Below are positions 7,361-58,995 of a stretch of DNA of 64,000 nt, one piece after another. A model generated the notes under the pieces. The model did no database searches and was not told the DNA's origin. It worked only from the letters and a program-made list of their open reading frames with translations. The stretch is from Candidatus Zixiibacteriota bacterium (GTDB lineage Bacteria; Zixibacteria; MSB-5A5; GN15; JACZUZ01), in assembly GCA_024280835.1 (NCBI GenBank), contig JAJRPJ010000009.1, forward strand, positions 1 to 64,000, given 5' to 3'. Positions within the stretch are counted from its first letter, which is position 1, and each line of letters opens with the position of its first letter. A program made the translations under genes and the position numbers.

Positions 7361-10216
7361 TTAGATACCAGTGGAGCCGCAAACTGGGGCCGCTCCCGAG
7401 CTGAAAATCCTAGCAATCATAAATGTCACATCGGAGATATTCACAGCATTATCTCCATTAGCATCGGCTTGATCCGCACAAGCAGGAGCTGGGCCTCCGT
7501 TGAAAATTCTAGTAATCATAAAGGTTACATCAGCGATATTGGCCGAACCATTATTGTCAGCGTCACCAGCGACCAAACAGCAACCGGCGCCAGTACAAGC
7601 ATCCAAAACACCATCATTGTCAATATCGAATTGAGACTGCGGCAGGAACACGAGTCCAGTCGGCGCTGTCATATCAGCTTCGTTGCGAATATAATAACGA
7701 TGGTAGCGACCTTCAGGGACGTATTCGAGAACCCGTGGCGTGCCACCTGAGCGAGCAACGACTATGTTACCAACATTGTTAAGTGTGATTCCCCAAGGAT
7801 GACTGATATCAACTAAATCATTGAAGACTTTGACAAAAGCGCCTGAGGCGCCATCAAACTGGAGTAATTGGTTGCCGTCATAGCTTGAGACAATGTAAGC
7901 GTCGAGGGATGGCACAAACACCAAAGCCCGCGGCCCGAAAAGTCCGCCATCACCTGCGCTGATAAAGTCACCGATTGGTGCGCCTGTAGAACCGTCGTAT
8001 TTGATAACACGGTTATTGCCACTACTGGTGACTAAAAGATCACCGTCACTATTGAAGAGCATTCCATAGGGAGCGCTAAGACCACCGCTTCCTGCTGGAA
8101 CGAAATCAGAGATGAAAGCGCCGCTCAGTCGGTCATACTTGCGGATGGCGTTATTGTCTCTGTCAGCGACATATAATTGACCTGCGCCATCAATTGCGAT
8201 TCCAGAGGGTTTGTCCAATGAGCCTCCACTTAGCACCAGTGGGGAAATCACACCTGAAAGCGGATCTAGGCGATAGACTCTTTCGCCGAGCGCTCCAAAG
8301 TTGGCGATGTATAGCTGTCTATCTGGACCGAGAGTTACGTCAAAAGGTTGTAAAGCGCCTCCCACAGAATCGGCGCCTACTGGCCAGCCGCTTCGGGCAT
8401 GGTATTCACGCAGTCCACCGACAATATCGCCGACGAAGAGATTATGTTGACGTTCAAGATCGACCCAATCTGTGACGCCATTGCCATTACAGTCCTGACA
8501 AATATCAGGGATATTGTCTCGGTCAAAGTCGGTTAGTGTGCCGTCAGCGATGTCAATAAAGTCAGCGACACCATTGCCATCACAATCTGGCTCACAGACA
8601 TCAGGAACATTGTTGCCATTGACATCTATGACACCCATATTCGAGATTTCGAATTCATCGGGGATGCCGTTACTGTTACAGTCGGATTCGCATTCATCGG
8701 GAATACCATTGGAATTGATGTCGGCGCTAGTAAGATTCAATATATCGGTCGGGTCAAGAACACTGTTACCGTTGCAGTCTTCGCATTCGTCTGGAATGCC
8801 ATTGCTGTTGACATCGGCGCTGGTGAAGTTGACAGTTATGTCGATAGCGTCGTCTATTCCGTTGTCATTGCAATCATAGAAAACGCAACCGCCAATTTCG
8901 ATTTGGTCTTGGAGGACTTGCTGTACACGGCTGTGGAACCTGTAATCAATGTTTGTCATGTAACCAGTGTGAATATGGCAGTAGCTGAGAATTGTGCCAC
9001 CTGACGGCGAAGGCACACCAAGACCGCAACTGTCGATTTCTGGGGTATAGCTGTCATGGGTGTGACCCGAGCCAGCATTGTGTCCCATTTCATGGGAAAC
9101 AACAGTGACATCCCAATTATTGAGGCTGCGATTTTCAAGAGGTGTGGCAAAGGCGCCATTGAGGTAGCCACTTATGGCGTATGAAGAAGCCGAGCAAGCG
9201 GTCGAGAAGAATGCGATGCCACCGAAAGGCAAATCGCGTCTGCCAGAAAGTAGATGAACGAAGTTCAATCCTGTTAAATCTTCATTGGCATTCCACCAGT
9301 TGCGCAAACTTCCGACATCATCGGATTGGTAGGGTTCCCCGCCTGAACTCCATAGCCTGACACGGTCGATTTTGATACGCATGTCGACATCGCGCTCGTA
9401 AGTCGCGCTAACCGCCCCGAAAAGCTGGACAATATAGGCGGCTGTTGCAGTTTCATCGCCAGCAAAAACATCTACAAATAATGAATCCGCATCGATTGCG
9501 ATGTATGCGGTTTTGACACCACGATTAGTTAAGTTGGTCGCTGTTGCTGCAGATGGTAGTGAGAATGCGGCTGGTTCGTTGAGACCGCAAAACTCCACAC
9601 CTTCTGGTAAATCTCCTTGCGGAATATTATTGGCGCTGGTGATTAGAGACCCTGAGGCGCCAAGGTCGTTTGCGGTTTGTTGTGAAGTTAGAAAGTATTG
9701 TGTTCCATTTGAAAGTGTCACAACACCTGAACTACTGCCAGCGCTCAAGGCCAGATAAGCATGAGAACCAGGGTCACCTGCCACTGAGCCGCGCAGGAGA
9801 GTCACCTGAGGCGCGGGAATTTCTCTCTCACCTGAAGCGTCGGCGATTATGAAGCGAGTTTTAGGAGTTGTGACGCTGAAGCTTCTCATGGTCAACTCTA
9901 CCGACTCGTTAGTATTGATGGGAAAGGGAATCTGTAGAGTGTGTTTTTCGCTTTGAGCGCTTATCTCCAGCAACTTGTTTAACTCTGCAATATCTAGACT
10001 TATGCGTACACTCTTTTTGGCAGAATCGAGAGCAGTTGTGGTAAGAGCTCTCAAGGGGTTTACTGACAATTCAGCAGTGTAATTTTCAGCTTTCGTAGTG
10101 GCCTGTGTTTTACTGGCGCTAGAGCCAAAAAGAGCTAGAGATAGAACTACACAGAGCCAGCCAATAGATTTAGTTGAATGCTTCGAAGTTATAGTTTGCA
10201 TTGTAAAAGTTCGCAT
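7361..10216 (-). CDS. secreted metzincin protease with calcium repeats, NHL-like propeller and dockerin
   Basis: A 951-residue exported protein. The hydrophobic signal lies at about 18-35. A protease domain reaches to about 440 with the zinc site HEMGHNAGSGH (about 375-385), which matches the metzincin pattern HExxHxxGxxH. The Met-turn position reads ILSYCH, with Leu where Met is usual. Residues about 445-590 hold Asp/Asn-rich calcium loops (DCNGNGVTD, DVNSNGIPDEC). Residues about 600-865 hold repeats like a six-bladed NHL propeller (GIAIDGAGQLYVAD, GMLFNSDGDLLVTS). Residues 876-951 form the paired dockerin-like tag starting AGCCLVAGDAD and ending PVCGSTGI. A role in extracellular protein degradation is inferred; the substrate is unknown. 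A second Met at 10201 is a possible start. Confidence 0.88.
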   Translation of the reverse strand: MRTFTMQTITSKHSTKSIGWLCVVLSLALFGSSASKTQATTKAENYTAELSVNPLRALTTTALDSAKKSVRISLDIAELNKLLEISAQSEKHTLQIPFPINTNESVELTMRSFSVTTPKTRFIIADASGEREIPAPQVTLLRGSVAGDPGSHAYLALSAGSSSGVVTLSNGTQYFLTSQQTANDLGASGSLITSANNIPQGDLPEGVEFCGLNEPAAFSLPSAATATNLTNRGVKTAYIAIDADSLFVDVFAGDETATAAYIVQLFGAVSATYERDVDMRIKIDRVRLWSSGGEPYQSDDVGSLRNWWNANEDLTGLNFVHLLSGRRDLPFGGIAFFSTACSASSYAISGYLNGAFATPLENRSLNNWDVTVVSHEMGHNAGSGHTHDSYTPEIDSCGLGVPSPSGGTILSYCHIHTGYMTNIDYRFHSRVQQVLQDQIEIGGCVFYDCNDNGIDDAIDITVNFTSADVNSNGIPDECEDCNGNSVLDPTDILNLTSADINSNGIPDECESDCNSNGIPDEFEISNMGVIDVNGNNVPDVCEPDCDGNGVADFIDIADGTLTDFDRDNIPDICQDCNGNGVTDWVDLERQHNLFVGDIVGGLREYHARSGWPVGADSVGGALQPFDVTLGPDRQLYIANFGALGERVYRLDPLSGVISPLVLSGGSLDKPSGIAIDGAGQLYVADRDNNAIRKYDRLSGAFISDFVPAGSGGLSAPYGMLFNSDGDLLVTSSGNNRVIKYDGSTGAPIGDFISAGDGGLFGPRALVFVPSLDAYIVSSYDGNQLLQFDGASGAFVKVFNDLVDISHPWGITLNNVGNIVVARSGGTPRVLEYVPEGRYHRYYIRNEADMTAPTGLVFLPQSQFDIDNDGVLDACTGAGCCLVAGDADNNGSANIADVTFMITRIFNGGPAPACADQADANGDNAVNISDVTFMIARIFSSGAAPVCGSTGI

Positions 10217-10586
10217 GGTATTGGGCGCTTCCCTTTTGATTGTCTAGGCCATTTATAAGTAGGCAAAAAATGTTGGAAAAGTGTGTTTGGACAACGCGCT
10301 GAAAAAATGTGCTGGAGAAATTCGTCAAGACGAATCCATCCAGAGAAAGACACTGAACTTTCAGTACACATAAGCTAGAAAGTCCTAGGTAATCTAGGAT
10401 ATCAGGACAACTCAGGTAAAAATAGTGTTGATGTGAGGTATATATTATGGCGCTTGACGGCAGCTCAGGCGCCACAGCTCCAATATAGCACAAGTCAAGG
10501 AATCAGCAAGTAGGAAATTCGCTCGGTGTAGGATGATTTGTCGGGTACCATTTCGCCTCTAAACCTAAGAAACTAACCAGAAGCCC
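10217..10586. other. intergenic stretch, no gene seen
   Basis: 370 bp between the metzincin gene and the phosphate transporter, both on the minus strand. It should contain the promoter of the protease gene. The open frames inside (for example to 10493) lack ribosome sites and overlap the protease start, so I do not call them. Confidence 0.5.
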
Positions 10587-23297: not shown

Positions 23298-24293
23298 TCA
23301 AGAACCACAAACTGGGGCTGGGCCGCCAGAGAAGATTCGGGCGATGTTAAATGTGACGTCTGCGATATTGACAGCATTGTCGGCGTTTGAATCCGCAGCG
23401 CTTGGGCATGTTATCGGTGGCCCACTACTGAGAATTCGAGCTATTAGGTATGTAACATCAGCGACATTGAATGAGCCATCATCGTCGGCGTCACCGGCGA
23501 CTATGCAACATGTGCCCTGCAAAACTGGTACAAATCCTTCATCGCCAGAGAACTTCAAGAAGAGCGGATAAATGGAACTGTCTTGAGTCGGGGCTTGCAC
23601 TGGAGATAATGTTTCCCAGTTGACCTCAACTACACTCTCACTGGCGGATGCGGCCAAAGATAAATGGATAAGCGCTGGTACATCAACAGCCACGCTCGAA
23701 AGCGAACCATTGGGAACAGTAACTAGTCCGAGACTAACAACTCCAGGCGAAGGTATTGAAGACACACCTAACCCACCACCCTCAAAAACCGAACCCGCAG
23801 CGGGGAAAGTAATTGAATCCACCTGCGCCAAAGCGCCATTCACAGTGATAGAGATTGGCAGAGAGAATGCTTCATAACGTGGGGCATTGACCATAGTTAA
23901 AGCCAAATCAAATGAAGTTGTATTGGCTGGAATGCGATTGGGAAAGCGAAGTTCGATTGATTCATCAAGAGTAGGACTTAGCGAAGAACCTGTAGGAGCG
24001 CAGGTTCCCCATGTGCCGGTTCCACAAGTGAAGATACAAGTCAAAAGAGCTTGGGCGTCACCAACAGAAAGAAGTTGAAGTCCATCGAAATCGGCAGTAT
24101 CAAAGTCAACTGGCGAAGAGCCGCCATTGAAGAGGTACTCAATGTCTGTGATTAGATCTCCGATATTCACGGTTCCGTCGCCGTTAGAATCGCCACAACC
24201 CGAAGGTTGCGCCTTTATGGGCTGTGACAATATTCCAGCTAATAGAAAGATACCAACAAACAATAGGCCGTTATTTTTTTGGGCTTTGTACAT
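23298..24293 (-). CDS. secreted protein with N-terminal calcium repeats, cohesin-like region and C-terminal dockerin
   Basis: 331 residues from the ATG at 24293, chosen because GAGG lies 8 nt upstream; a GTG at 24302 is also open. Signal sequence NNGLLFVGIFLLAGILSQ. Directly after it come calcium-loop modules (GDSNGDGTVNIGDLITDIEYLF). The middle (about 105-250) is a beta-rich region that reads like a cohesin sandwich. The last 70 residues are the paired tag starting GTCCIVAGDAD and ending GPAPVCGS. It therefore carries dockerin-like modules at both ends. No catalytic motif is seen. A scaffold or adhesin role is inferred. Confidence 0.82.
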   Translation of the reverse strand: MYKAQKNNGLLFVGIFLLAGILSQPIKAQPSGCGDSNGDGTVNIGDLITDIEYLFNGGSSPVDFDTADFDGLQLLSVGDAQALLTCIFTCGTGTWGTCAPTGSSLSPTLDESIELRFPNRIPANTTSFDLALTMVNAPRYEAFSLPISITVNGALAQVDSITFPAAGSVFEGGGLGVSSIPSPGVVSLGLVTVPNGSLSSVAVDVPALIHLSLAASASESVVEVNWETLSPVQAPTQDSSIYPLFLKFSGDEGFVPVLQGTCCIVAGDADDDGSFNVADVTYLIARILSSGPPITCPSAADSNADNAVNIADVTFNIARIFSGGPAPVCGS

Positions 24294-24423
24294 CTCGTTC
24301 ACCTCATCTATCTCACAAAACTTGGTTCATTTGCCTAGTAACATCTAACTGTTATAATCTACCAGCAAGTCAGGTATTTGGCAAGTACAAGTTTTGTTGA
24401 TGTTGGAGCTCGCACACAAAACC

Positions 24424-25278
24424 TTATGGGCCACAAATTGGTGCAGGGCCACCACCAAAGATTCTATTCACGAGATACATCACATCATTAACTCTGTTAA
24501 AGCCATCACCATTTGCATCGGCTTGGCGGAGACAAGGTGGCCACGGCCCTCCCTCAAATGTCCAGCTTAGCAAGAAAGCTGCATCGGCGATGTTTGTGAA
24601 ACCGTCTCCATTTGCATCACCAGCGACGTCACAGGTAGAACACTCATATACTTCAATACAATAGCCGCCATCGGGATAGCCGCCAATACTAGCTCCCCAA
24701 GCTGGCGCTCCAATCGGAGAATACAACCATTCAGCGGCTGGTGGGAAGAAAGCCGAATCAACACAGATTACACCTTCTTGATCGACGGTAAGCGTTGCAG
24801 TCAGAATATCTTCAAGGCCGATAGGGCCGAAGCCGCTACCTTCACCCATGACAAGCGCAACTCCACCCGCTTGAAACGTACTCGGTAGAGAGCCGCTAAA
24901 TTGATCTGGCCCCATTTGTATGGAAGTGCCACCAAAATTGAAAGAAACGGGGTCCGCCCACTGGCCAACCGCTGTGATAGTTGAGTTCCAAGTAACATTT
25001 GTTATTGAGCCATCCCGGCTATAAAGCCTGAAACCCAACGACACCCCATCTGCGACAACTGAAGTTTCAGAGCTCCAAATCAGGTTGAAGGGCGTTCCAG
25101 GAGCTACCCGAACAAAAACGCTGTCGGGTTGAGAGCGTTGGGTTACCGCAAAACCCTCAACCCGCAATTCGACATTCGCTGTCTGCGATTGAGAGGTAAG
25201 TGGTGTAAGCGCAGACATGAGCAAAGCTATGAGAATAACAGTGGGCGATGTCCATCGTCGAAGTAGCCTGTGTGACAT
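24424..25278 (-). CDS. secreted dockerin-tagged protein of unknown function
   Basis: 284 residues from the ATG at 25278, which has AAAGGAGATTGTT just upstream and begins a normal signal peptide (MSHRLLRRWTSPTVILIALL). The frame is open to 25512, but that part overlaps a gene remnant and is rejected. The body (about 40-205) is an all-beta region with no catalytic motif, possibly cohesin-like. The last 70 residues are the paired tag starting CSTCDVAGDANGDG and ending GPAPICGP. The second calcium loop is altered (FNRVNDVMYLVNRIF). It lies 130 bp upstream of the previous dockerin gene on the same strand. Confidence 0.8.
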   Translation of the reverse strand: MSHRLLRRWTSPTVILIALLMSALTPLTSQSQTANVELRVEGFAVTQRSQPDSVFVRVAPGTPFNLIWSSETSVVADGVSLGFRLYSRDGSITNVTWNSTITAVGQWADPVSFNFGGTSIQMGPDQFSGSLPSTFQAGGVALVMGEGSGFGPIGLEDILTATLTVDQEGVICVDSAFFPPAAEWLYSPIGAPAWGASIGGYPDGGYCIEVYECSTCDVAGDANGDGFTNIADAAFLLSWTFEGGPWPPCLRQADANGDGFNRVNDVMYLVNRIFGGGPAPICGP

Positions 25279-25383
25279 AACAATCTCCTTTGAATTTGGA
25301 ATTCTACGTTGGTGTGTCTTGGGATAGGGCTGTTTTTGGAATAAGAAAACCGCATTGGGATTTTCATGGTTGTGTTTCTTCTT

Positions 25384-25440
25384 TCTATGGGCCGCAGGTT
25401 GGGGCTGGACCAATCTTGTTTTGGAGAAAGCGGTCACAAC
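25384..25440 (-). pseudogene. remnant of the 3' end of another dockerin-tagged gene
   Basis: On the minus strand, in a frame different from the flanking open frame, the sequence reads DRFLQNKIGPAPTCGP followed by TAG. This is the hallmark ending of the dockerin tags (compare RIFGGGPAPICGP). No upstream coding part is recognisable in the 400 bp before it, so it looks like the leftover tail of a deleted paralogue. Confidence 0.65.
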
Positions 25441-25841
25441 AACGGCGATTAGAAGTCGATGAATAATAATACTCCTTGCATGGAAAGAAGTAAAATGGAC
25501 GTGGTTTGTCAAGGTTTATTCGGTGCGAGGACTAGGACCCGGTTTTTGCGGTTGGCGATTCTAGAGCGATTTGGGGATGATATTTCCTGTTGTTATTTCC
25601 GGGATATGTAGTATCTTGACTCTGACCGTACTAAACTTGCCGTCGGTCAAGGGAATGTCCCTGCACAACTCATATTCTTCCCTCATAGAGCATTAACTGA
25701 TGTGGCTCTTGGCTGTTAGTCATTATTTCGTTTTTTGGACTAATGTTTCTATAAGGCAAGAGCTTACAGGCGCTCTTTTTGCATGAATGTCCGTTGACAT
25801 GAACTTCCTAACACTCCTCAGAGATACGAATTGATACATAT
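25441..25841. other. intergenic stretch between divergent genes
   Basis: About 400 bp separate the dockerin remnant (minus) from the FG-GAP protein (plus). No gene is seen. Promoters for both directions must be here or nearby, but I cannot pick a convincing one. Confidence 0.45.
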
Positions 25842-28772
25842 ATGAAGAATGTCGTACGCAAAACATTGATAATCAGCGCCTTAGCTCTCACGGGAGTTTT
25901 TTCGGCGTCGCAGAATAGTTACTCACAATGCACATCTGGGATTGCAATCTCTGGCGAGGTCGCAGGCGATTACTTTGGTCGCTCGGTTTCTGGCACAGGT
26001 GATTTCAATGGAGATGGGTTCGACGATATTTTGGTAGGCTCTGGAGCTAATGATGAAGCTGGGGCTAATGCTGGAAAAGTCTATATCTATTCTGGAACCA
26101 CAGGGGCTTTGCTAAAATCATTCACTGGTATTGCCGCAGGTGAGATTTTCGGTAGCGCCGCTAGCTTTGTGGGCAATGTCAATGCTACAACTTTGACGGC
26201 TGAAATAATTGTCGGCGCGAAAAGTTCGGATGTCGCAGGAGCGGACGCGGGTCGGGCTTATGTCTTTACAAGCGGCAACAACTTTCCGATTTACACTTTG
26301 ACCGGCGAGGCCGCTGGCGACGAATTCGGTTTTTCGGTTGCATCCGCTGGCGATGTCAATAATGATGGATTTGCTGATTTCGTAGTCGGAGCGCCATTTA
26401 ATGACGCTGGCGGCGCGAACGCTGGACGAGCTTATGTTTACTCAGGTCAGACAGGTTTGATTCTTTACACTTTGACAGGCTCTGCTATCGGTGACGAGTT
26501 TGGATTTTCGGTTGCAGGAGCAGGTGATGTCAATAGTGACGGTTTCGCCGATGTGATTGTCGGGGCGCCTTCAAGCGATTTTGCAGGAGCTGACGCTGGC
26601 CGAGCTTTCGTATTCTCGGGCGCTACAGGGCTGATTCTCTATACATACACTGGAGCGGCGTCATTTGACTATCTCGGACGCGCTGTCGCTGGGATTGGTG
26701 ACGCCGATGGTGATACTTTCGATGATTATGTTATTGGCGCTTCACAGTCGGTGACAAGTGGCGCGGGCCAGGCATTTATTTACTCAGGCCAAACTGGCGT
26801 ACTCTCACGTATTCTCAATGGCGAAGGCGCATTCGACTCTTTTGGAGCAACACTCTCCCCCGCTGGTGATGTTAATCAGGATGGCTTAGCCGATGTGCTA
26901 GTTAGCGCTTATGCCAACGACGCTGGTGGTAATTTGGCTGGTCGTGTTTATGTTTACGATGGCTCAACTGGCGCATTGCTCTACACGCTGACAGGGACTG
27001 CCGCAGGTGACTATTTTGGTATTGCAGTTACTGGCGGCGGCGACTTTGACGGTGATGGATTCGAGGATTTTGCGATTGCAGCTTATGGCAGTGATGCAGG
27101 TGGCGTCGACGCTGGACGAGTGACACTATACACTTGCACGCCAGATACTGATGGTGACGGCATTCAGGACCATCTTGATAATTGCCCTAATACAGCCAAC
27201 CCCACCCAAGTCGACTCTGACAATGATGGTATCGGAGATATCTGTGACATCTGTCCTTTTGACCCTGACAATGACATCGATGGTGACGGAATTTGCGGTG
27301 ACGTAGATAATTGCCCGACAGTCGCCAATCCATTGCAAATTGACTCCGATGGTGACGGTCTAGGTGATTTGTGTGATACCTGCCCGAACGACGCCAACAA
27401 TGACGCTGATGGTGATGGTATTTGCGCTGATGTAGATAATTGCCCAACCACATTCAATCCTTCTCAATTAGACACGGACGGCGATGGCATTGGTGACGCT
27501 TGCGACACTTGTCCAAACGATCCGCTCAACGATGCAGACGGCGACGGCGTTTGTGGTGATGTCGACAATTGTCCAACAGTAGCTAATGCAAACCAACTTG
27601 ATACAGACGGCGATGGAATCGGCGATTTGTGTGACACCTGCCCGAATGACCCAGACAATGACATAGACGGCTACGGTATTTGCGGCGATCTCGACAATTG
27701 CCCAACGACTGCCAATCCAACCCAAGCAGACTCAGACGGTGATGGAATCGGTGATGTTTGTGACACCTGTCCGAACGACCCAGACAACGACATTGACGGT
27801 GATGGCATCTGCGGCGACATAGATAATTGTCCTACTACCGCCAATCCAACACAAGCGGACGCTGATGGTGATGGCGTAGGGGATGTTTGTGATATTTGCC
27901 CAAGCAACCCAGATCCTCTTCAAGCCGACACAGACGGCGACGGACTCGGAGACGCTTGCGACGCCTGCCCGAATGATCCGAACAATGACATTGATGGTGA
28001 CGGTATTTGCGGTGATGTAGATAATTGCCCAACGACTCCTAATCCATCGCAAACCGATGGTGATGGTGACGCTATTGGCGACGCTTGCGATAACTGCCCA
28101 ACGACATTCAACTCGGCACAAAATGACTCAGACGGCGATGGTATCGGTGACTTGTGTGACACCTGCCCTAACGACCCATTGAACGACGTGGATGGTGATG
28201 GCATTTGTGGCGATGTTGATAATTGTCCAACCACCGCCAACCCGTCACAAACAGATACTGACGGTGATGGTATCGGTGATGTCTGTGACGCTTGCCCCAA
28301 TGACCCGAATAATGACATCGACGGCGATGGGGTCTGTGGTGATATTGACAATTGCCCAACTACCGCTAACCCTACCCAAGCGGACGCTGACGGTGATGGG
28401 ATTGGTGATGTCTGTGACGCTTGCCCCAACGACCCAGACAATGACATAGACGGCGATGGAGTTTGTGGTGATGTTGACAATTGTCCAACTACTTTTAATC
28501 CGACTCAACTAGATACTGACAATGACGGCCTTGGTGACATCTGTGACTTCTGTTGCACTGTTCCAGGTGACGCTGATGACAATGGTGTCTTTAATATCGC
28601 CGATGTGACATTTTTGATTGCTAGAATATTCACAGGCGGCGCTGCCCCATCTTGTGCAGACCAAGCTGACGCCAATGGTGACAATTCGGTCAATGTCTCG
28701 GATGTCACAACTATGATAGCGCGTATTTTCGCTAGCGGTGTCCCGCCAGTCTGCGGAGCTACAGGCAACTAA
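25842..28772 (+). CDS. secreted FG-GAP / thrombospondin type-3 repeat / dockerin protein
   Basis: 976 residues. The signal peptide covers about 1-29. About seven FG-GAP (integrin-alpha-like propeller) repeats with calcium loops such as GDFNGDGFDDILVG span about 33-428. A long array of thrombospondin type-3 calcium repeats follows (about 430-900), with a 43-residue full unit (DTDGDGIGDxCDTCPND...DGDGICGDVDNCPTT) and two shortened units. The C-terminal tag starts CCTVPGDADDNG and ends PVCGATGN. It should bind tens of calcium ions and form a long stiff stalk. An adhesin or surface-fibre role is inferred. There is no clear Shine-Dalgarno; the ATG sits in an AT-rich leader. Confidence 0.9.
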   Translation: MKNVVRKTLIISALALTGVFSASQNSYSQCTSGIAISGEVAGDYFGRSVSGTGDFNGDGFDDILVGSGANDEAGANAGKVYIYSGTTGALLKSFTGIAAGEIFGSAASFVGNVNATTLTAEIIVGAKSSDVAGADAGRAYVFTSGNNFPIYTLTGEAAGDEFGFSVASAGDVNNDGFADFVVGAPFNDAGGANAGRAYVYSGQTGLILYTLTGSAIGDEFGFSVAGAGDVNSDGFADVIVGAPSSDFAGADAGRAFVFSGATGLILYTYTGAASFDYLGRAVAGIGDADGDTFDDYVIGASQSVTSGAGQAFIYSGQTGVLSRILNGEGAFDSFGATLSPAGDVNQDGLADVLVSAYANDAGGNLAGRVYVYDGSTGALLYTLTGTAAGDYFGIAVTGGGDFDGDGFEDFAIAAYGSDAGGVDAGRVTLYTCTPDTDGDGIQDHLDNCPNTANPTQVDSDNDGIGDICDICPFDPDNDIDGDGICGDVDNCPTVANPLQIDSDGDGLGDLCDTCPNDANNDADGDGICADVDNCPTTFNPSQLDTDGDGIGDACDTCPNDPLNDADGDGVCGDVDNCPTVANANQLDTDGDGIGDLCDTCPNDPDNDIDGYGICGDLDNCPTTANPTQADSDGDGIGDVCDTCPNDPDNDIDGDGICGDIDNCPTTANPTQADADGDGVGDVCDICPSNPDPLQADTDGDGLGDACDACPNDPNNDIDGDGICGDVDNCPTTPNPSQTDGDGDAIGDACDNCPTTFNSAQNDSDGDGIGDLCDTCPNDPLNDVDGDGICGDVDNCPTTANPSQTDTDGDGIGDVCDACPNDPNNDIDGDGVCGDIDNCPTTANPTQADADGDGIGDVCDACPNDPDNDIDGDGVCGDVDNCPTTFNPTQLDTDNDGLGDICDFCCTVPGDADDNGVFNIADVTFLIARIFTGGAAPSCADQADANGDNSVNVSDVTTMIARIFASGVPPVCGATGN
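27141..28545 (+). repeat. tandem coding repeat, 129-bp unit
   Basis: About eleven 43-codon units plus two 23-codon units encode the thrombospondin type-3 array. Units are diverged at the DNA level, mostly at third positions, while the protein stays nearly constant. This indicates old repeats under selection rather than a recent expansion. The repeats also create long open frames on the opposite strand, which are artefacts. Confidence 0.9.
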
Positions 28773-29111: not shown

Positions 29112-31583
29112 GTGCGCACAGCCTTCTTCTATAACAATCACATAAAATATCAAGCTCTCACATCGTCGCCATTCTCTTCAAAATTGGTAGCTGTTGCGAT
29201 TATGGCGGTTCTCTTGACGCTGTGTTACGGTGAGACTGCTTTTGCTGTCGACGACGGCTCTCCCCTCGCTCAGCCGTTTGTGATTCAAGGGCAACTTGAA
29301 ATTAGGTTTACAGACGAGGTAACAGTGAATTCTGCGGTTAGATCGTTTGGTCGGGTGAGTGTCTCTAGTCCAGCGGTTGACGCTGTACTGAGTACCTACG
29401 CCGTCAGTGAAATGTACTCAGTCTTTCCGTGGCGCGACGAAACGTCAACGAATGCCGCTGAACGCAGAATGAGCAAGTACGAATTGTTGGTTTTCCCCGT
29501 GACTGTCGATCTTGATATCATGATTGATGAATTGCTAGCAACTGGTAAAGTAGCTACAGCAGAAAAAATCTGGGCTGTTCCTGTTATGGAACTCCAAGGA
29601 AGTTCGGCATTTGGCTCTCAGGCGACTCCCAATGATCCTAGTTGGAATTTGCAGTACGCGCCAGCTCTGATTGGCGCTACTAGCGTTTGGGATGTTGAAA
29701 ATGGATCTGATACGGCGAAAATCGGTGTGACAGATACAGGAGTAAATTACCTACATGAAGACCTCAAGAATCAGATCTGGGTCAACCCTGGTGAAGACAT
29801 CGATAATGATGGTGAAGTTTATGATCTTGATGATCTCAATGGTATCGATGACGATGGCAACGGCATTGTTGATGACTTGATTGGTTACGACTTTTTTACA
29901 GGCTTTGGTTTACCCCTCTTCCCCGGTGAGGAAGGCGGCGGCCCAGACTCTGACCCAAATGACTTCAATGGTCATGGAACGCATGTCGCAGGAATTGCCG
30001 CCGCTGTCTCAAATAATGCGACTGGCGTGGCTGGCATCGCTGGCGGGTGGGGTGGCTCTCAAAGCTACTCCAGTCGTGGAGCGCGTATTATGTGCTTGCG
30101 TATTGGTGGAACCGCCGATGACGGCAATGGCTATGTAAACCTTTCAAACGCCGCAAGCGCATTTGATTATGCCGCACGCATGGGCGCGGATGTTATGAAT
30201 GCGTCTTGGGGTTCCTCGGGACTCTCTTCAATGCTGGATGCAATTAATATGGCTGCAGACAGCGGGATTTCGATAGGCAAGGCCGCTGGCAATGCGAACA
30301 ATAGTGAAGGCGATTGGATGAACCTTTTACCAGGTGTCATTTCTGTGGCCTCAGTTAATTCAAGTGATATCAGATCGGGGTTTTCTAGTTTTGGTGATTG
30401 GGTAGAGATATCTGCGCCTGGGTCTAGTATTTATGCTACGTATTCAAGTCAATACACACCGACATACAGATACTTAAGCGGCACCTCTATGGCAACCCCC
30501 GCATACTGTGGAGCGTTTCTATTGGTCAAATCCTTGATGCCAAGCTTCACGCGAGTTGAGATTGACTCTCTGCTATTGGCCACTGCTGATAATATCGACG
30601 CTCAGAATCCAACCTATGTTGGGGCTTTAGGCTCTGGACGTGTCAATGTCGCTAGCGCCATTGCCGATTTACCTGTGGCTAATTTTAGCGCTGGACCTGT
30701 GCTCTCTGGTACGCTAGGCTTAACAGTTGATTTTGTTGACCTTTCTCCTAATTCACCAAGCTCTTGGCTTTGGAGTTTTGGTGATGGCGCAAACTCTACT
30801 ATGCAAAACCCATCGCATACATACTCTCAGCCAGGCCTCTTCACTGTCACATTGGAAGCCACTGAGCCAAGAGGTGTTGGTTTTGAGCAGGCCAAGCGCA
30901 TGGTTTTCATTCATGCTGACACAGTCGGTGGTGATTCTGGTTCGGGTTTGCTGTCTGAGGGTGTCACAGTTCCAATAGCTTTGCATAATGATTTTCTGGT
31001 GAAATCAATTATTCTACCATTAAGCTATGCTGACTTCAATGGTATCTCGCTGGTGTTTGACTCGTTTTCAACGGTCGGTCTCCAAACTCAGGATTGGGAT
31101 GTTCAATCATTGGGTTTGAATGATCCAGTCGGCAAAGAACTTCTGATTACTCTGCAAAGCGACCTGATTGCGGGCCATTCACGCTACTTGCAACCAGGCG
31201 ACGGACCTATTGTAAACCTGCATTTCAGTTTTGACCCATCTTCTGACCCAGGGGCGTTGCCTATCACGACCACTACAGTCCTCGGCGATGTCCTATTGGT
31301 CGAGACCCAGCAAGGCTCGTATACACCTTCGTCGACACCCTCCCTCGCTATTATGGCTGGTTGCTGTGAGCAAGCTGGAGACGCCGACAATAGCGGCTCA
31401 ACAAATATCGCCGATGTAACATTTCTTATCACTAGAATATTTTCCTCAGGACCTGCCCCCGTTTGCGCCGATGCGGCTGATGCTGATGGTAGCAACTCAG
31501 TTAATATCTCCGATGTTACCTATCTCATCGCGCGTATCTTCAGTAGTGGCCCAGCCCCAGTTTGCGGCTCGACTGGCCTTTAA
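29112..31583 (+). CDS. secreted subtilisin-like serine protease with PKD, cohesin-like and dockerin domains
   Basis: 823 residues with a GTG start; AAGGAG lies 10 nt upstream. Signal segment about 24-45. A propeptide-like part runs to about 170. The S8 catalytic domain has Asp in VTDTG (about 208), His in NGHGTHVAG (about 288), Asn in AAGNANN (about 394) and Ser in SGTSMATP (about 459). An insertion after the Asp is rich in Asp (DIDNDGEVYDLDDLNGIDDD), probably a calcium site. A PKD domain lies at about 520-603 (SFGDG...PSHTYSQPG). A cohesin-like sandwich follows (about 605-745), then the tag from GCCEQAGDADNSG to PVCGSTGL. An extracellular protease; the substrate is unknown. Confidence 0.93.
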   Translation: MRTAFFYNNHIKYQALTSSPFSSKLVAVAIMAVLLTLCYGETAFAVDDGSPLAQPFVIQGQLEIRFTDEVTVNSAVRSFGRVSVSSPAVDAVLSTYAVSEMYSVFPWRDETSTNAAERRMSKYELLVFPVTVDLDIMIDELLATGKVATAEKIWAVPVMELQGSSAFGSQATPNDPSWNLQYAPALIGATSVWDVENGSDTAKIGVTDTGVNYLHEDLKNQIWVNPGEDIDNDGEVYDLDDLNGIDDDGNGIVDDLIGYDFFTGFGLPLFPGEEGGGPDSDPNDFNGHGTHVAGIAAAVSNNATGVAGIAGGWGGSQSYSSRGARIMCLRIGGTADDGNGYVNLSNAASAFDYAARMGADVMNASWGSSGLSSMLDAINMAADSGISIGKAAGNANNSEGDWMNLLPGVISVASVNSSDIRSGFSSFGDWVEISAPGSSIYATYSSQYTPTYRYLSGTSMATPAYCGAFLLVKSLMPSFTRVEIDSLLLATADNIDAQNPTYVGALGSGRVNVASAIADLPVANFSAGPVLSGTLGLTVDFVDLSPNSPSSWLWSFGDGANSTMQNPSHTYSQPGLFTVTLEATEPRGVGFEQAKRMVFIHADTVGGDSGSGLLSEGVTVPIALHNDFLVKSIILPLSYADFNGISLVFDSFSTVGLQTQDWDVQSLGLNDPVGKELLITLQSDLIAGHSRYLQPGDGPIVNLHFSFDPSSDPGALPITTTTVLGDVLLVETQQGSYTPSSTPSLAIMAGCCEQAGDADNSGSTNIADVTFLITRIFSSGPAPVCADAADADGSNSVNISDVTYLIARIFSSGPAPVCGSTGL

Positions 31584-36905: not shown

Positions 36906-38225
36906 CTATAGAGGTGGACACTGCGGCGCAGGCCCCGACGCAAATATTCTCGCTATTAGATATGTCACATCGGCGATATTAAACGAACCAGAGCCGTCAG
37001 CGTCACCAGCGCCATCTGGAATTGGCCCAGGTCCACCGCCAAATATGCGAGCTATCAAGTAAGTTACATCTGCGATATTGAAAGAACCTGAGGCATCTGG
37101 GTCACCACAGACATAGTAAAACACCGACCTAGTTGAATTGATGGGTGTGATTACTCCATTGGCTGTGACAGTAGCGCTTACGATATCTGTTCCTGAGATA
37201 ATTGGCGCAGTTATGATTGCAGTGTATGTTCCATCGCCATTGTCGGAGACAGCGCCCAGCGCTCCTCCGCCTGTGTTGACCAGTGACACAGATGCGCCTA
37301 AAGTTGGTGTGACACCATTTTGGTTCTTGGGTGTGACAGTGATGGTTGCTGTGTGGACGCCAGACGCTGGCAATGTATCTGGCGCTAAAGTTATTTCAGT
37401 TAAAATAGGATCGGCTTGCTGAGCGAGTTTCCAATCATCAAACATGTCCTGCAAGACATCAATAGGATCAGTTGAACCAGTGGTGCTAGGAACTTGTAGG
37501 AAAAGGAAAGGAGTTGGGCCATCACCTGGATGGAAGACTCTGATGAATGAGGATATTGCAGACTTCCCATCATTGGTACACCGCAAATCGGCTCCGACTC
37601 TTTTGGCGCCTTGCAGAGCGGCCATGAGTTTTTCTTCCAATGGGCCACTGGTTAGCAAAAACTGCGTTTCCATGTCATCGAGGACATCTAAACCATTGAG
37701 AATATTACCAGCTATAGCATAGCCAGGTCCAGTGCGGTGGCCTTTGAATTCGTTGTTATCAAAACCAGTATACGCCGCTGAGGCTCCGCCGCCAGCGAGT
37801 GTGACAGCCAGATATTGTCGAAAAGTTGGTGTGCCTTGAACATCATTGTTAACCATCCATCCAATAATTGAATCGGGAGTCAGACCTTCAAGCAGTCGAT
37901 CATGGGCATTGTCTTTGTTGGCCTGAATCCAAAACGCTTGAGTGTGGACAGCCCCGAGGGACTCGACAACATCGTCGATAATAAACGAGTTGCCTATACA
38001 GGAAGCCCCTGCTCCACCGACTGCTCCAGTGAGAGTGTCCACTGCGACAATAGAGAATGTCGCCTGAGCAGACCGAGCACTGAGAATCAACGCCAGAGTG
38101 AAGAGAGTAAGAAATAATTTTGATCGAAACTGATACCGTGAGGATGGCATAGTTGTAGCTGATTTGTTCAAGAACAATTTGCGAACCCCTGCCAGCCCTC
38201 GAAGACTTTTGAGATGCTGGGACAT
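36906..38225 (-). CDS. exported DUF1028 protein with Ig-like domain and dockerin
   Basis: 439 residues from the ATG at 38225, preceded by AAAGGAGGTAGTT; the frame is open to 38252. The signal helix (KLFLTLFTLALILSARS) lies unusually far in, at about 35-52, so a later start at MPSSRYQFRS is possible. The DUF1028 domain (about 55-260) starts TFSIVAVDTLTGAVGGAGAS and has GKSAISSFIRVF near its end. An invasin/Ig-like domain follows (about 285-365, GVHTATITVTPKNQNGVTP). The tag starts VCGDPDASGSFNIADVT and ends GPAPQCPPL. The cysteine pattern is reduced compared with the other tags. Confidence 0.85.
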   Translation of the reverse strand: MSQHLKSLRGLAGVRKLFLNKSATTMPSSRYQFRSKLFLTLFTLALILSARSAQATFSIVAVDTLTGAVGGAGASCIGNSFIIDDVVESLGAVHTQAFWIQANKDNAHDRLLEGLTPDSIIGWMVNNDVQGTPTFRQYLAVTLAGGGASAAYTGFDNNEFKGHRTGPGYAIAGNILNGLDVLDDMETQFLLTSGPLEEKLMAALQGAKRVGADLRCTNDGKSAISSFIRVFHPGDGPTPFLFLQVPSTTGSTDPIDVLQDMFDDWKLAQQADPILTEITLAPDTLPASGVHTATITVTPKNQNGVTPTLGASVSLVNTGGGALGAVSDNGDGTYTAIITAPIISGTDIVSATVTANGVITPINSTRSVFYYVCGDPDASGSFNIADVTYLIARIFGGGPGPIPDGAGDADGSGSFNIADVTYLIARIFASGPAPQCPPL

Positions 38226-38381
38226 AACTACCTCCTTTAGAGTGGGCGCCATGATTCAAGGTAAGCCATCTATTCTGGACAAACCAATGAGGTGGATCAT
38301 GGCTGCTGACCAAAGAAAAACTAACTTGCTAAAGATACTATGTTATTCAGATTCGTCAATAGAAGATAATTCCCAAAATAA

Positions 38382-50206: not shown

Positions 50207-50211
50207 AAGAA

Positions 50212-50793: not shown

Positions 50794-53235
50794 TTAGGGC
50801 CCGCAAACTGGCCCAAGGCCAGAATTGAAAATCCAGCTAATAAGAAAAGTTACATCAGCAATATTGACAGATCCGTCTCCATTAGCATCGGCTGATTGTT
50901 CGCAAACTGGCGCCACTCCAGAGCCAAAAATACGGGCGACAAGAAATGTTACGTCGGCAATATTGGCGCTGAAATCAAAATTCGCATCGCCTGGGACCAC
51001 ACAACAAGTCGAAACCAAGGTTATTGTCCCTGAGAGAGTGTCTGGTGCAAAGTTGACTATATCGGAAGCAAACAATGGCGACGCGCCACCAAAACTGGGC
51101 ATAGTAATCGGATGTGGTGTTGCGCTCGGGCTACCAAGAATAGTGAAGAACAAATTAAGAACAGCTCCAGAACCAGCGGCAAGGAATGGTTCAGAAGGAG
51201 CCACTGTCATCGAGTAAGCTGCTCGCTTGTTAAAAGGATCAATACTGACTTGGCTCAAAGCTCCGAATGTCTCAGTGCGCAATCCTGTTGTTGTCGCGCT
51301 ATCAAAGCTCAATGACAGAGGGCCGTCGTTCCATGAGAACGGAATGACGATTTGGCTTAGTGGCCTTGTATTTCGGGCATAGATTTCGACATTAACCTGT
51401 GAGCCACCGCCGCCAGTTACATCTTGTGATATCAATGTATCAGCGACAATTAACAATCTCTCTGGTTTACGAACTATCAAAGACTCACCACCGCGAGTGA
51501 CCGTTAAATTCAAATCATAGAGACCGGGCAAGGTGTAGTTGTGACTCGGGTCTTCGGAACTTGATGAACTACTATCTCCGAAGTCCCAGAGATAATTATC
51601 AATTGGAGTCAATGGCGTGGCGCTGAATGACACAGTTGCTGGCGCGCGCGCAAACTGCGGAGCAACACCTAGGTCGGCGTCAATAACAACTCCAAAAAGC
51701 GCGTCTATTCCCGCCCGCAAATCTGGCAGAGGACCAATGTGCTCTAGAGTATCACCTTGTTGCGGTGAACCTGTGGCATTTAAGATGGTTCGAATCTCAT
51801 CGGCATCCAGAGTGGCTCCGCCACTAGCGGCCTTGTAGGCGGCCTGTAGCGCTATCACCGAGCCAGTGACGATTGGCGAAGCCGACGATGTGCCAGAAAA
51901 ACTGCGAGTATACCAAGTGTTGTCAGAGGCGCCACTGTAAAGATCGCCATAACCAGTTGTGGTCACGCCATTACCATAACCTTGCAAATTGACCCGTTCG
52001 CCATAGTTAGAAAAGGCCAAACGACGACGCGCGATGCCAAAGGGAATGAGCTGATTGGCGGGCGCTCCCGCCCCACATATTATTGCATGCGAATTGCGGA
52101 AAGTTGTGTCGAATACTTGTTGGTAAATTGATGTGTCATCATAGTTTTCTCCGCCATTGCCTGCGGCCTCGCAGATAGTCATACCCATCGCCCAAATCTG
52201 AACAAAAACATCAAAGTTGGCCTGAAAATACTCCATTGCCACAAACCCAGCTTGTCCGCTAATGACTTGAAAATTGAAATGCGGACCTGGGGTGTGTAAT
52301 TCTATTAAAAACACATCGCCCGGATTCATACTTGCCGCCGCTGTCAGCATTGTTCCCAACGAAGAATGCCCCCACTGCGCCGCTGGAACTATACCGCGCG
52401 TGCCTGTGCCATTGTCGGCGCCGATAATCTCTCCCATCACTGCAGTACCGTGGTCATTATCAGAGCTACTGCCACTGGTAACTATCACTGGCGGGTTGGA
52501 TGCCAATTCTTCATGTGAAAGATTCCAACCGTTTTCGATATCGACGATTATAATCCCAGCGCCGTACCCATCGGCAAACTCGCCAGCGGAGTAAGCGTCA
52601 ACACCATCTGGAGCAGCTTCTAAATAATCCTGGTCATCCTGAAATGATGGAGTGCTTGAGGCCACCGAGGCCAGTTGGGATGACTGTGATTGAGTGGGCA
52701 AAGCGCCCATTTCAAAGTTATCTAATGTCGCCAGATAGGCGCGTGGCTCGGGGTAGGCAATCTCTATATAATCAAGGGCGTTGAGTTCATTGCACAGTCG
52801 CTCACATTCGGCAGGATCTGTTATTTCGATGTAATAGTAATTTGCCAAGTCAGCTAACTCTTGATTGGTCTTACGCTGTAAAGCCTCACGTTGTCTATCA
52901 AGTTCACCAGCCGGAATTTTTAACAACGGCTTGATTGTCGCTTTTAGTTCATGTTTCTTCAGAACTGTCAGGACTGATGATATGTCTTTGCCAGCGAGCG
53001 ACCGTAAACCAGAGGCGCCACGACCAGTGATCGCGCGCACCTGTGAGCCCTCGGCAAATTTAATAACAATTCTGAGAATATCCGCCTGAGCGCCAATAAC
53101 TGTCGTTGGAGGTTTGTACGCCGCCACGCGTGGTTTCAATTTGGCGCTGGCTGTCCCTACGGCGGTCAGCAATACCATGAGGGTCAGAACGGTTGTCTTT
53201 GGCCTTATTAGATTCTTAATCAGTTCCATATTCAT
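50794..53235 (-). CDS. secreted subtilisin-like protease with PKD, cohesin-like and dockerin domains
   Basis: 813 residues. The signal peptide covers about 1-31. A long pro-region runs to about 215. The S8 domain has Asp in IIIVDIENGW (about 232), His in DNDHGTAVMG (about 262), Asn in EAAGNGGEN (about 360) and Ser in SGTSSASP (about 450). A PKD domain lies at about 525-598 (WDFGDSSSSSSEDPSHNY). A cohesin-like sandwich follows (about 600-740, VNVEIYARNTRPLSQIVIPF), then the tag from CCVVPGDANFDF to GPVCGP. It shares its whole architecture with the subtilase at 29112, although the catalytic domains are quite different, so the two are not recent duplicates. Confidence 0.92.
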   Translation of the reverse strand: MNMELIKNLIRPKTTVLTLMVLLTAVGTASAKLKPRVAAYKPPTTVIGAQADILRIVIKFAEGSQVRAITGRGASGLRSLAGKDISSVLTVLKKHELKATIKPLLKIPAGELDRQREALQRKTNQELADLANYYYIEITDPAECERLCNELNALDYIEIAYPEPRAYLATLDNFEMGALPTQSQSSQLASVASSTPSFQDDQDYLEAAPDGVDAYSAGEFADGYGAGIIIVDIENGWNLSHEELASNPPVIVTSGSSSDNDHGTAVMGEIIGADNGTGTRGIVPAAQWGHSSLGTMLTAAASMNPGDVFLIELHTPGPHFNFQVISGQAGFVAMEYFQANFDVFVQIWAMGMTICEAAGNGGENYDDTSIYQQVFDTTFRNSHAIICGAGAPANQLIPFGIARRRLAFSNYGERVNLQGYGNGVTTTGYGDLYSGASDNTWYTRSFSGTSSASPIVTGSVIALQAAYKAASGGATLDADEIRTILNATGSPQQGDTLEHIGPLPDLRAGIDALFGVVIDADLGVAPQFARAPATVSFSATPLTPIDNYLWDFGDSSSSSSEDPSHNYTLPGLYDLNLTVTRGGESLIVRKPERLLIVADTLISQDVTGGGGSQVNVEIYARNTRPLSQIVIPFSWNDGPLSLSFDSATTTGLRTETFGALSQVSIDPFNKRAAYSMTVAPSEPFLAAGSGAVLNLFFTILGSPSATPHPITMPSFGGASPLFASDIVNFAPDTLSGTITLVSTCCVVPGDANFDFSANIADVTFLVARIFGSGVAPVCEQSADANGDGSVNIADVTFLISWIFNSGLGPVCGP

Positions 53236-53525: not shown

Positions 53526-53566
53526 AGAAAATCTTGATTTTGGTCTTGAACTTGATCTTAATTCTT

Positions 53567-53648: not shown

Positions 53649-53693
53649 GTTGAATTATTCTAGTAAGAACTTCAGATATATTGCAGGAGGGAA

Positions 53694-54149: not shown

Positions 54150-54226
54150 GGGGTTTTCCTCCGTAAGATATTTACTATTGTTTCTAAATTACAACTGCTT
54201 CTATCATAAGCGCTCTCCGCAATTCA

Positions 54227-55027: not shown

Positions 55028-55133
55028 AACGCTGGTATAGATAAATCCCAAAACGCGTTGAGGCAAGCATTTGGTTGAATGAAAATGCACCAATCCCCCA
55101 ACGCCCTCCCATTTCCACCAACGCATCCCAGTC

Positions 55134-55364: not shown

Positions 55365-55563
55365 TGGTAAAATAACCACAGCGTACTGCGCGCCACACAT
55401 GACTATAACCTAATATTCTGGATTTCATTTTTTCTCTTGCCATCAAATGGTGAAATGATATATTGAATGTACCCACGCTGGAGCTCTCCCTCCGCCTCTT
55501 TGAGGGACACACCCCAACGGCACATCAATCTTACACTCCCTCGCGCACCACGGAGGTAGGCCC
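55365..55563. other. upstream region of the BNR-like gene
   Basis: About 200 bp separate the palindrome cluster from the next gene. Several overlapping open frames on both strands here have no supporting features. CACGGAGG lies just before the ATG at 55564 and supports that start. Confidence 0.5.
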
Positions 55564-58500: not shown

Positions 58501-58995
58501 ATCGAAGGAAACTGGGTGCACAGCAAGCTTAACTCGGCTCTGCGCTCAATCGTTGGAATTTCTCTGTTCAACAGCTCCGCGTCAGATAGTCAGGAAGTTG
58601 ACTTACATTTGGTTCTCAATAGTGGCGCCTATCGAATTGACCCCGATGACACTTTGAGCATGGTTGTCGTGATGATCACAGGCATTGGCTCGCGTGAGCA
58701 ATTTGATTCTTCGGTGGCGCTGATTAGACTCCTTCGGGCGCCGTTGATACCAACCGAATGCCTATGTTGTGTCGTACCAGGCGACTACAATGATGACGGA
58801 CAGTTCAATATCGCAGATGTGACTAGCGCAATCAACTCCATATTCTGCCCTACAGCTTTCTGTCCACCACCTCCGTGCCTAGATCAGGCTGACTTCAACA
58901 GCGACGGCAGCTTCAACATCGCAGATGTTACAGCCATGATAGCGAGAATTTTCAGCGGCGGCCCGCCGCCTGTCTGCGGCACAACTGGTAGATGA
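55564..58995 (+). CDS. large secreted protein with BNR-like repeats and dockerin
   Basis: 1143 residues. CACGGAGGTAGGCCC precedes the ATG. The signal lies at about 20-40. The N-terminal half (about 90-610) is beta-rich with Asp-box-like turns (SNDAGATWGP, SDNGGLNWD), as in sialidase-type propellers, but no sialidase catalytic set is recognised. The second half (about 625-1060) holds further beta domains, including a P-type interaction look-alike (WTLTNVSNQPANYSITI). The tag starts CCVVPGDYNDDG and ends PVCGTTGR. It has extra cysteines (IFCPTAFCPPPPCLDQ) in the linker between the two halves of the tag. Carbohydrate or matrix binding is a guess. Confidence 0.85.
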   Translation: MRSSRSSSKPSLHTNNWQNTIVGLSIALLATFCASGVLGMDKKTTEKLKLQAINSVKYALPVNRLDKSTSSGADGGQYIGATSSSATLGCTPGSQDAIRGLTFGCTYYDFQRNGSMNRMIVTNEPSHILNFTWTNQDNNSITGFRDVRFEGFDPSIGILSDGTGGVDIGGNWFPARSGFPTIDSRGANGLAVNSYHWDPSLGAGSTENAWIFYNNTPSLADYSGQIIDTANVNLLKLGNATELKWPRVAYTNDGAGTEVTHLLINSNRTDADGQILYTRKVGIGGAGVWDPAFEVGAGGFHLSGSITASRKAGSQKVVIAAALGRGDGTQSGGYIRRFNGQVSGQNDNDIFYMESNDAGATWGPLTNVTMRPDSLVHLGNPIFNFSPAAKLDVLYDQSDVFHIVWQAAIWNGYQGPFTTQGRFFHYDPTNDKIRIVHDFVWDQTKCNGGLFNLNATNPQISECDNKLYVTFEQFNDIPNGIEDDCSQRAPTSPEGAANGDIYVTVSDNGGLNWDLKRNLTATYTPNCDTILGGAFPDCDSDVWHSTTRYGVDVDVNTDDFDAIADLSANIGGYAGSNYLFVQYVNDSEPGGAINAEGAWTNNSMKVFRFGCVEKVSNPTIVLPFPTVQAVSDPAFTLPGQDSAIAWTLTNVSNQPANYSITILNDSPAGNIAITGSPLSGVISEGDPNFASFALILNANLETTVQHAHAEILIEGDLLGGPRTFLFDYTIGDLQLRKIDTLANMLVFSNQGGVGLQNNGGAGGLTMDFQDNPASSECDTTGNADNYLFDGSPIVSYNNGIVVTSMFSNNIVDSFQFRPLSPPSSDEVSDPDWFLGNSSEFTTQDSLLRLSVTYASPKTSIWNRPNWKVVFAQVNYYLAPGASAPLDSVFCAYGWDWDAPSDSGSRNSSFFNVENLLIGLRGLEAGQDTGNTACLPNDQRYAASLWAPNFQICLPDYTDAGSGLMATGFQAFYTRDNASFIEGNWVHSKLNSALRSIVGISLFNSSASDSQEVDLHLVLNSGAYRIDPDDTLSMVVVMITGIGSREQFDSSVALIRLLRAPLIPTECLCCVVPGDYNDDGQFNIADVTSAINSIFCPTAFCPPPPCLDQADFNSDGSFNIADVTAMIARIFSGGPPPVCGTTGR

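What the first reader, a model, noticed from the sequence alone, without database searches (positions are those of the whole stretch)
7361..58995. One Cys-flanked dockerin pair tags eight otherwise unrelated secreted proteins
Eight genes (ends at 7361-, 23298-, 24424-, 28772+, 31583+, 36906-, 50794-, 58995+) finish with the same about 70-residue module: CC-x-x-(A/P)GDA..NIADVTxLIxRIF, a linker with a Cys, then ADANGD..VNIxDVTxxIxRIF..GPAPVCG at the C-terminus. The carriers are two subtilases, a metzincin, an FG-GAP/TSP3 stalk, a DUF1028 protein, a BNR-like protein and two small proteins. The fixed end position, the terminal Cys and the near-invariant ending suggest a sorting or surface-attachment signal rather than only cellulosome-type docking. 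Calcium loops and pairing Cys are seen directly; the function is inference.
Basis: partly seen in the sequence, partly recalled or inferred. Interest (0 to 1): 0.75.

Follow-up and report, generated by a model that had tools for sequence, protein, structure and literature searches.

The report
Dockerin end-tags standing in for secretion tails
In an uncultured Zixibacteria-like genome about seventy otherwise mostly unrelated proteins end in one calcium-binding docking tag, and in related proteins the same place is sometimes taken by the usual type IX secretion tail, which suggests the tag hooks proteins onto matching receptors that are themselves put on the cell surface by that secretion system.

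Summary
In detail: eight window genes end in a two-repeat dockerin module. In this genome 73 ORFs carry it; in 67 it ends within 10 residues of the stop. Third codon positions are near saturation while mean residue identity is 59%: selection, not recent copying, keeps it. It is a true dockerin. The genome has a type IX secretion system: SprA, PorU and a PorV-family gene, 47 type A sorting tails over cut-off. All seven ORFs with a Pfam cohesin at E<0.3 (four over cut-off) end in such a tail. Eleven carriers, two in the window, have a cohesin-like domain directly before the dockerin; the one modelled folds as a cohesin. Dockerin and tail replace each other on homologous proteins: 20 of 64 dockerin-tagged bodies match a tail-tagged one; a subtilase tree needs six swaps. 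Five of six dockerin-less genomes lack cohesins. Best reading: a non-covalent surface tag received by cohesins exported by type IX secretion. Binding, location and outer-membrane route are inferred. A tail-bearing cohesin scaffold was proposed before, in Cloacimonadota (PMC8542988).

The parts
7373..7588 (-). C-terminal dockerin pair of the reprolysin-type (M12B-like) protease 7361-10216
   Evidence: Pfam Reprolysin and Dockerin_1
23301..23519 (-). C-terminal dockerin pair of small protein 23298-24302
24015..24197 (-). second, N-terminal dockerin pair of the same protein (Doc - beta domain - Doc; same layout in relatives in L042 and L048)
   Evidence: the middle domain matches cohesins only in a low-confidence model
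24427..24648 (-). C-terminal dockerin pair of 24424-25512; its body is homologous to part of the tail-tagged cohesin proteins C1:125990 and C8:14863
28542..28760 (+). C-terminal dockerin pair of FG-GAP/TSP3 protein 25842-28772
30918..31340 (+). cohesin-fold domain directly before the dockerin in subtilase 29112-31583
   Evidence: seed and match of the domain profile; model pLDDT 83.9, best Z 16.7 to cohesins
31353..31571 (+). C-terminal dockerin pair of subtilase 29112-31583
36912..37130 (-). C-terminal dockerin pair of DUF1028 protein 36906-38252
   Evidence: Dockerin_1 below cut-off
50797..51015 (-). C-terminal dockerin pair of subtilase 50794-53235
51022..51441 (-). cohesin-like domain directly before the dockerin in subtilase 50794-53235
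   Evidence: seed and match of the domain profile; not modelled
58756..58983 (+). C-terminal dockerin pair of large protein 55564-58995

Best explanation
The module is a type I-like dockerin used as a general surface-display tag. A small set of proteins that carry cohesin domains is exported through the type IX secretion system and held at the outer membrane by their own C-terminal sorting tail; some seventy proteins that lack such a tail end instead in a dockerin and are captured by these cohesins, calcium-dependently and non-covalently. Eleven carriers also have a cohesin-like domain just before the dockerin, so docking could be chained. Shown: terminal position, dockerin and cohesin homology or fold, type IX genes and tails, cohesin-plus-tail architecture, exchange of dockerin and tail on homologous proteins. 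Inferred: that these cohesins bind these dockerins, that carriers end outside the cell, and how they cross the outer membrane.
For: Terminal within 10 aa in 67 of 73 module ORFs of this genome and for 75 of 85 modules in 58 related loci. Both repeats keep NIADVT..IARIF while four-fold sites are near saturation, identity 0.332 against 0.300 expected, which fits a two-way binding surface. SprA, PorU 666.6 bits against cut-off 420 with a PorV-family gene next to it, 47 over-cut-off TIGR04183 tails. All seven ORFs with a Pfam cohesin at E<0.3, four of them over its cut-off, carry such a tail, among them a 500-residue frame of two cohesins plus tail. The window subtilase's domain is a cohesin fold. 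20 of 64 queried dockerin-tagged bodies match a tail-tagged protein of the same genome at E<1e-8, e.g. 45% identity over 201 aa. 83 of 90 complete subtilase ends from 16 genomes are tail (61) or dockerin (22); the careful tree needs 6 changes, one between sister paralogues of one genome with 100/100 support. Cohesin absent in 5 of 6 module-less genomes and 9 of 126 others. Cohesin counts follow dockerin counts with tail counts held (partial rank correlation 0.51), tails less so (0.17).
Against: No binding was tested and no complex was modelled. Module-less genomes are two lineages (f6, f17), so co-loss and higher tail counts rest on few events; over all 132 genomes dockerin and tail counts correlate positively (+0.32), and the family-level trend is not significant (-0.36, P 0.13). 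G025 and G027, both over 90% complete, have many modules but no Pfam cohesin at E<=1e-3; G122 has two cohesins and no module. Cohesin-like domains also sit in 13 dockerin carriers, so a cohesin need not be a receptor for other proteins. Of the 20 body matches, 8 are to one tail-tagged protein only (C13:44715, which aligns with the FG-GAP part of window protein 25842) and some are through shared domains, so they are not all like-for-like paralogues. 6 of 73 module ORFs are not terminal. A signal-peptide heuristic did not discriminate (66 of 73 carriers, 16 of 26 background).
Confidence: 0.6

Rival explanations
1. The dockerin pair is itself a type IX sorting signal, read directly by PorV/SprA as a second kind of C-terminal domain; cohesins are incidental.
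For: Near-fixed C-terminal position; exchange with type IX tails on homologous proteins; every searched genome of the phylum has type IX tails.
Against: Dockerin homology and cohesin co-occurrence would be unexplained; internal and N-terminal copies exist; in two ORFs a dockerin is followed by an ordinary tail.
Confidence: 0.1
2. A cohesin-dockerin network forms an extracellular or S-layer-like coat by head-to-tail docking of carriers that hold both domains, with no special link to type IX secretion.
For: 11 carriers have the cohesin-like domain directly before the dockerin; one window protein has two dockerin pairs.
Against: All seven Pfam-cohesin ORFs at E<0.3 have type IX tails; tag exchange.
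Confidence: 0.13
3. The terminal module is a structural, calcium-binding cap (or clasps the neighbouring cohesin inside the same chain) that stabilises the protein, without binding another protein.
For: Mostly conserved Cys (86, 93, 79 and 97% in their columns) and loop residues; cohesin-like domain and dockerin side by side in one chain.
Against: A cohesin-like domain was detected in only 13 carriers; helix positions recalled as cohesin-contacting are conserved in both repeats; does not explain exchange with tails.
Confidence: 0.1
4. An ordinary cellulosome for polysaccharide breakdown.
For: Dockerin and cohesin families; the 18 PDB sequence matches are named dockerins, cellulosomal enzymes or scaffoldins and an amylase of Ruminococcus bromii; three carriers match Ig_Rha78A_N, a rhamnosidase-associated domain.
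Against: The families most often matched are FG-GAP, TSP3, PKD and subtilase; no glycoside hydrolase catalytic family among the 25 shown of 53; no many-cohesin scaffoldin seen.
Confidence: 0.07

Closest known systems
Ca. Stygibacter (Cloacimonadota) cellulosome-like complex, PMC8542988 (section 7 read)
   Same: C-terminal dockerins on signal-peptide enzymes incl. S8 and C25 peptidases; cohesin scaffoldin-like protein with a conserved C-terminal domain for cell-surface attachment
   Different: There one 3,755-aa scaffoldin with tandem cohesins and CBMs and a few enzymes; here about 70 carriers, several scattered cohesin proteins with tails, cohesin-like domain plus dockerin in one chain, and evidence that dockerin and tail replace each other
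'Planctosome' of Nemodlikiaceae (Planctomycetes), PMC6461901 (passages seen)
   Same: Non-cellulosomal cohesin/dockerin system with reprolysin-like peptidases, TSP3 repeats and an adaptor holding both domains; proposed for polypeptides
   Different: Anchor proposed through a lamin-tail domain; no type IX secretion link in the passages seen
Clostridial cellulosome (mostly recalled; one passage of PMC11557425 seen)
   Same: Dockerin on secreted enzymes, cohesin-bearing anchor
   Different: Gram-positive anchors, polysaccharide enzymes, many-cohesin scaffoldins
Type IX secretion type A sorting tail (TIGR04183)
   Same: Short conserved C-terminal address shared by many proteins in the same genome; exchanged with the dockerin on homologues
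   Different: Unrelated sequence; Ig-like tail (FlgD_ig overlap) against calcium-loop helix pair
Archaeoglobus fulgidus non-cellulosomal cohesin (2xdh; fold match)
   Same: Cohesin outside a cellulosome; cohesin and dockerin in one protein there is recalled, not checked
   Different: Archaeon, no type IX secretion (recalled)

Membership tests
Type I dockerin (PF00404) | two calcium-loop repeats matching the Pfam and solved-structure profiles | tested here: met
   64 genome matches, best 1.9e-11; six of the eight window carriers over the cut-off; profile of 63 modules finds 18 solved sequences, best 3e-6
Cohesin | cohesin beta-sandwich fold in the window | tested here: met
   model of window 30900-31580: the 50 Foldseek rows shown are cohesins or cohesin-bearing chains, best E 1.1e-8; Z 16.7, 2.2 A, 136 aligned
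Cellulosome | scaffoldin with several cohesins | tested here: inconclusive
   at most two cohesins per ORF by Pfam over the genome and by a home-made profile over fetched ORFs; both can miss diverged cohesins
Cellulosome | carriers mainly polysaccharide-degrading enzymes | tested here: inconclusive
   no glycoside hydrolase catalytic family among 25 of 53 families shown for 67 carriers; 28 families were not shown
Cellulosome / cohesin-dockerin system | dockerin binds cohesin | not testable with these tools
Type IX secretion system in this genome | SprA, PorU, PorV and sorting tails | tested here: met
   PorV family model met, the narrower PorV equivalog cut-off not met (149 of 250 bits); GldKLMN not searched
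Type IX type A sorting tail | the module itself, or the carrier's end, matches TIGR04183 | tested here: not met
   by a tail profile made from this genome's tails only 2 of 73 module ORFs hold a tail, in both after an internal dockerin
PEP-CTERM / LPXTG / GlyGly-CTERM sorting signals | hydrophobic helix and basic cluster at the very C-terminus (recalled) | tested here: not met
   67 of 73 ORFs stop within 10 residues of the module, leaving no room for it; sortase and exosortase genes were not searched

The most novel reading that the evidence does not exclude
A two-component secretion address: dockerin-tagged proteins fold in the periplasm, dock there onto cohesin proteins that carry the type IX tail, and pass SprA as complexes, so that one tail exports many tail-less cargos. 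The phylum would have two exchangeable ways to be type IX cargo, in cis (own tail) and in trans (dockerin).
Probability: 0.2. Interest if true: 0.88.

Novelty: new variant of a known kind. Interest (0 to 1): 0.62.

Why it matters
Dockerin-bearing proteins occur in uncultured phyla and are usually read as cellulosomes. If the dockerin stands in for the type IX tail, much of the surface proteome of this phylum (126 of 132 searched genomes have the module) becomes predictable from sequence, and how tail-less proteins get outside becomes testable. It would also be a natural one-anchor, many-cargo display system in diderm bacteria.

Tried and rejected
Type II secretion as the route: a GspD over the curated cut-off was found in none of 132 genomes, though 128 have weaker secretin matches; this lowers but does not exclude it. 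A plain negative correlation between dockerin and tail counts: not found, it is positive over all 132 genomes. Only dockerin-poor lineages stand out: among genomes at least 90% complete, median 135 tail candidates in 8 with <=5 strong module hits (one of them, G021, has 47) against 54 in 65 with >=20, P 2e-4, relatedness not corrected. SprA against module presence gave no contrast, both are near universal (117 and 126 of 132). Recent module copying: rejected. Cys clasp as the essence: rejected, lineage-limited. Signal-peptide heuristic: uninformative. The second structure model (23298-24302) was poor, pLDDT 47.8; its cohesin matches are only a hint.

Literature searches: 'dockerin' with 'Zixibacteria' 0 papers (with 'C-terminal' added 0), 'Zixibacteria' with 'type IX secretion' 0, 'Zixiibacteriota' with 'secretion' and 'extracellular' 0, 'dockerin' with 'type IX secretion' 11, 'dockerin', 'T9SS' and 'cohesin' 8, 'scaffoldin' with 'T9SS' 23, 12 listed, sorting-signal terms 85, 15 listed, non-cellulosomal terms 33, 20 listed. 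Of the papers listed I looked into four: PMC8542988 (section 7 and passages), PMC6461901, PMC11557425 and PMC3534657 (passages; the last reports no dockerin in cellulase genes of Melioribacter). Only open-licence papers are held, so absence from print is not shown.
Full report
What was checked. Pfam confirms subtilase, reprolysin-type protease, FG-GAP/TSP3 and DUF1028 carriers, not the BNR label.

The organism. The window is G000:C11:1-64000 of a 3.31 Mb, 96% complete genome. A scan of named genomes with the module returned 58 loci, 55 of them in Candidatus Zixiibacteriota MAGs; the phylum of the window is inferred from this.

The module genome-wide. The eight-row profile gives 79 places at E<=1; stretches around all of them were fetched (those in the window were at hand). 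With a profile of 63 modules, 73 ORFs hold it (a few are cut at contig ends or very short); in 67 it ends within 10 residues of the stop, and 23 of these end in CGTTGx. The six others: two are followed by a type IX tail, one is N-terminal, two are mid-chain, one has 20 residues after it. In the 58 related loci 75 of 85 modules are terminal; three of the ten others lie in ORFs cut by the end of the locus, and several are N-terminal copies in proteins laid out like 23298-24302. Mean amino-acid identity between modules is 0.585, but identity at four-fold degenerate sites is 0.332 against 0.300 expected from pooled third-base frequencies. So the likeness is held by selection. Both repeats keep the same residues at positions that in classical dockerins contact the cohesin (positions recalled).

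Type IX secretion. SprA_N is present. A C25 ORF is PorU by NCBIfam (666.6 bits, cut-off 420) and the next gene is PorV-family (207 bits, cut-off 90; the narrower PorV equivalog is not reached). There are 55 TIGR04183 matches at E<=1, 47 over the cut-off, 43 of these 47 ending within 9 residues of the stop, mostly with an RKMVLLK-like end. In the phylum 132 of 132 genomes have such tails and 117 of 132 SprA.

Cohesins. Pfam finds ten matches in nine ORFs, five matches over the cut-off in four ORFs. The seven ORFs with E<0.3 all have a type IX tail; of the two weaker ones, C12:422875 has neither tag and C6:66443 is a dockerin carrier. A profile made from six domains finds 20 at E<1e-4 among the fetched ORFs, which were chosen for dockerins, cohesins or tails: 13 in dockerin carriers (11 directly before the dockerin) and 7 in five tail-tagged proteins (seeds and iterated rows match by construction). 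The window's own domain with its dockerin (30900-31580) folds with pLDDT 83.9; the 50 Foldseek rows shown are cohesins or cohesin-bearing chains, with Z up to 16.7.

Exchange of tags. With tags removed, 20 of 64 dockerin-tagged bodies (68 tagged, four too short to query) match a tail-tagged protein of the same genome at E<1e-8, among them C10:348579 and C1:90443 (45% over 201 residues) and the neighbours C17:85306 and C17:87597 (27% over 517); 8 of the 20 match C13:44715 only, and some matches are through shared domains. Subtilases were taken from 16 further genomes: of 95 ends 5 were cut; of the 90 complete, 61 end in a tail, 22 in a dockerin, 6 in neither, 1 has an internal dockerin. Complete ends in seven dockerin-rich genomes: 21 dockerin and 26 tail; in nine dockerin-poor ones 1 and 35 (Fisher about 1e-5 with 27 for 26; relatedness not corrected). 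On the careful tree of 85 rows the tag changes at least 6 times (9 on the quick tree): sister paralogues L225 (tail) and L226 (dockerin) of one genome at 100/100; tail-tagged L246, L249, L263 join dockerin-tagged L274 (100/96) and then the dockerin-tagged window subtilase group (99/91).

Phylum counts. Modules at E<=1e-8 in 126 of 132 genomes. Six genomes have none (G006, G007, G119-G122); five of these have no cohesin at E<=1e-3, against 9 of 126 others (Fisher 3.7e-5, but two lineages). Their tail candidates number 43 (G006, 52% complete), 149, 131, 139, 239 and 302, against a median of 54 in 65 module-rich genomes at least 90% complete. Against the simple picture: over all genomes dockerin and tail counts correlate positively (+0.32), the family-level trend is not significant, and family f16 has both many tails and a fair number of modules. 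Cohesin candidates follow dockerin candidates (0.56; 0.51 with tails held) more than tail candidates (0.31; 0.17 with dockerins held).

Interpretation. The evidence fits a division of labour: type IX secretion puts cohesins on the surface, dockerins bring the rest. Binding, calcium dependence and location are inferred. How carriers cross the outer membrane is open: no type II GspD over cut-off in 132 genomes, and riding with cohesin proteins through SprA is the boldest reading. The cohesin-like domain beside the dockerin in eleven carriers, and the two-dockerin protein 23298-24302, suggest chains or branches.

Known before. A cohesin scaffold with a C-terminal attachment domain plus C-terminal dockerin peptidases was proposed for Ca. 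Stygibacter (PMC8542988, section 7), and a proteolytic 'planctosome' for Planctomycetes (PMC6461901, passages). Among the held papers my searches showed no paper on the Zixibacteria system, and I saw no report of exchange of dockerin for tail in the listings, most of whose papers I did not open.

Noticed in passing
35813-36838 and 36906-38252: 35813-36838 starts like a DUF1028 protein by eye (not scanned) and lies beside the DUF1028 carrier 36906-38252 but has no dockerin; a possible tagged/untagged neighbour pair.
   Followed up: no
G102:C11:15601-15777: A cohesin match at E 1.4e-10 lies in an open frame of 24,197 residues in a related genome, a giant protein if real.
   Followed up: no
G000:C3:57602-67636: An open frame of 3344 residues with many repeated units ends in a weak cohesin match, a diverged dockerin-like stretch (by eye) and a type IX tail.
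   Followed up: partly
L053 (record titled Nitrosomonas sp. OFTM190) and L072 (Desulfobacterota): The module also appears in records named for other phyla; the first may be a mis-binned Zixibacteria contig.
   Followed up: no
G000:C1:122714, C4:12933, C1:125990, C8:14863, C3:57602: Tail-tagged cohesin proteins share, by eye, a diverged dockerin-like stretch (RGDINLNG...EIADA..FTNYF) between cohesin and tail, perhaps a second dockerin kind with other partners.
   Followed up: partly
7373-58983: Carriers are clustered: 8 in 64 kb against 1.4 expected from the genome mean.
   Followed up: partly
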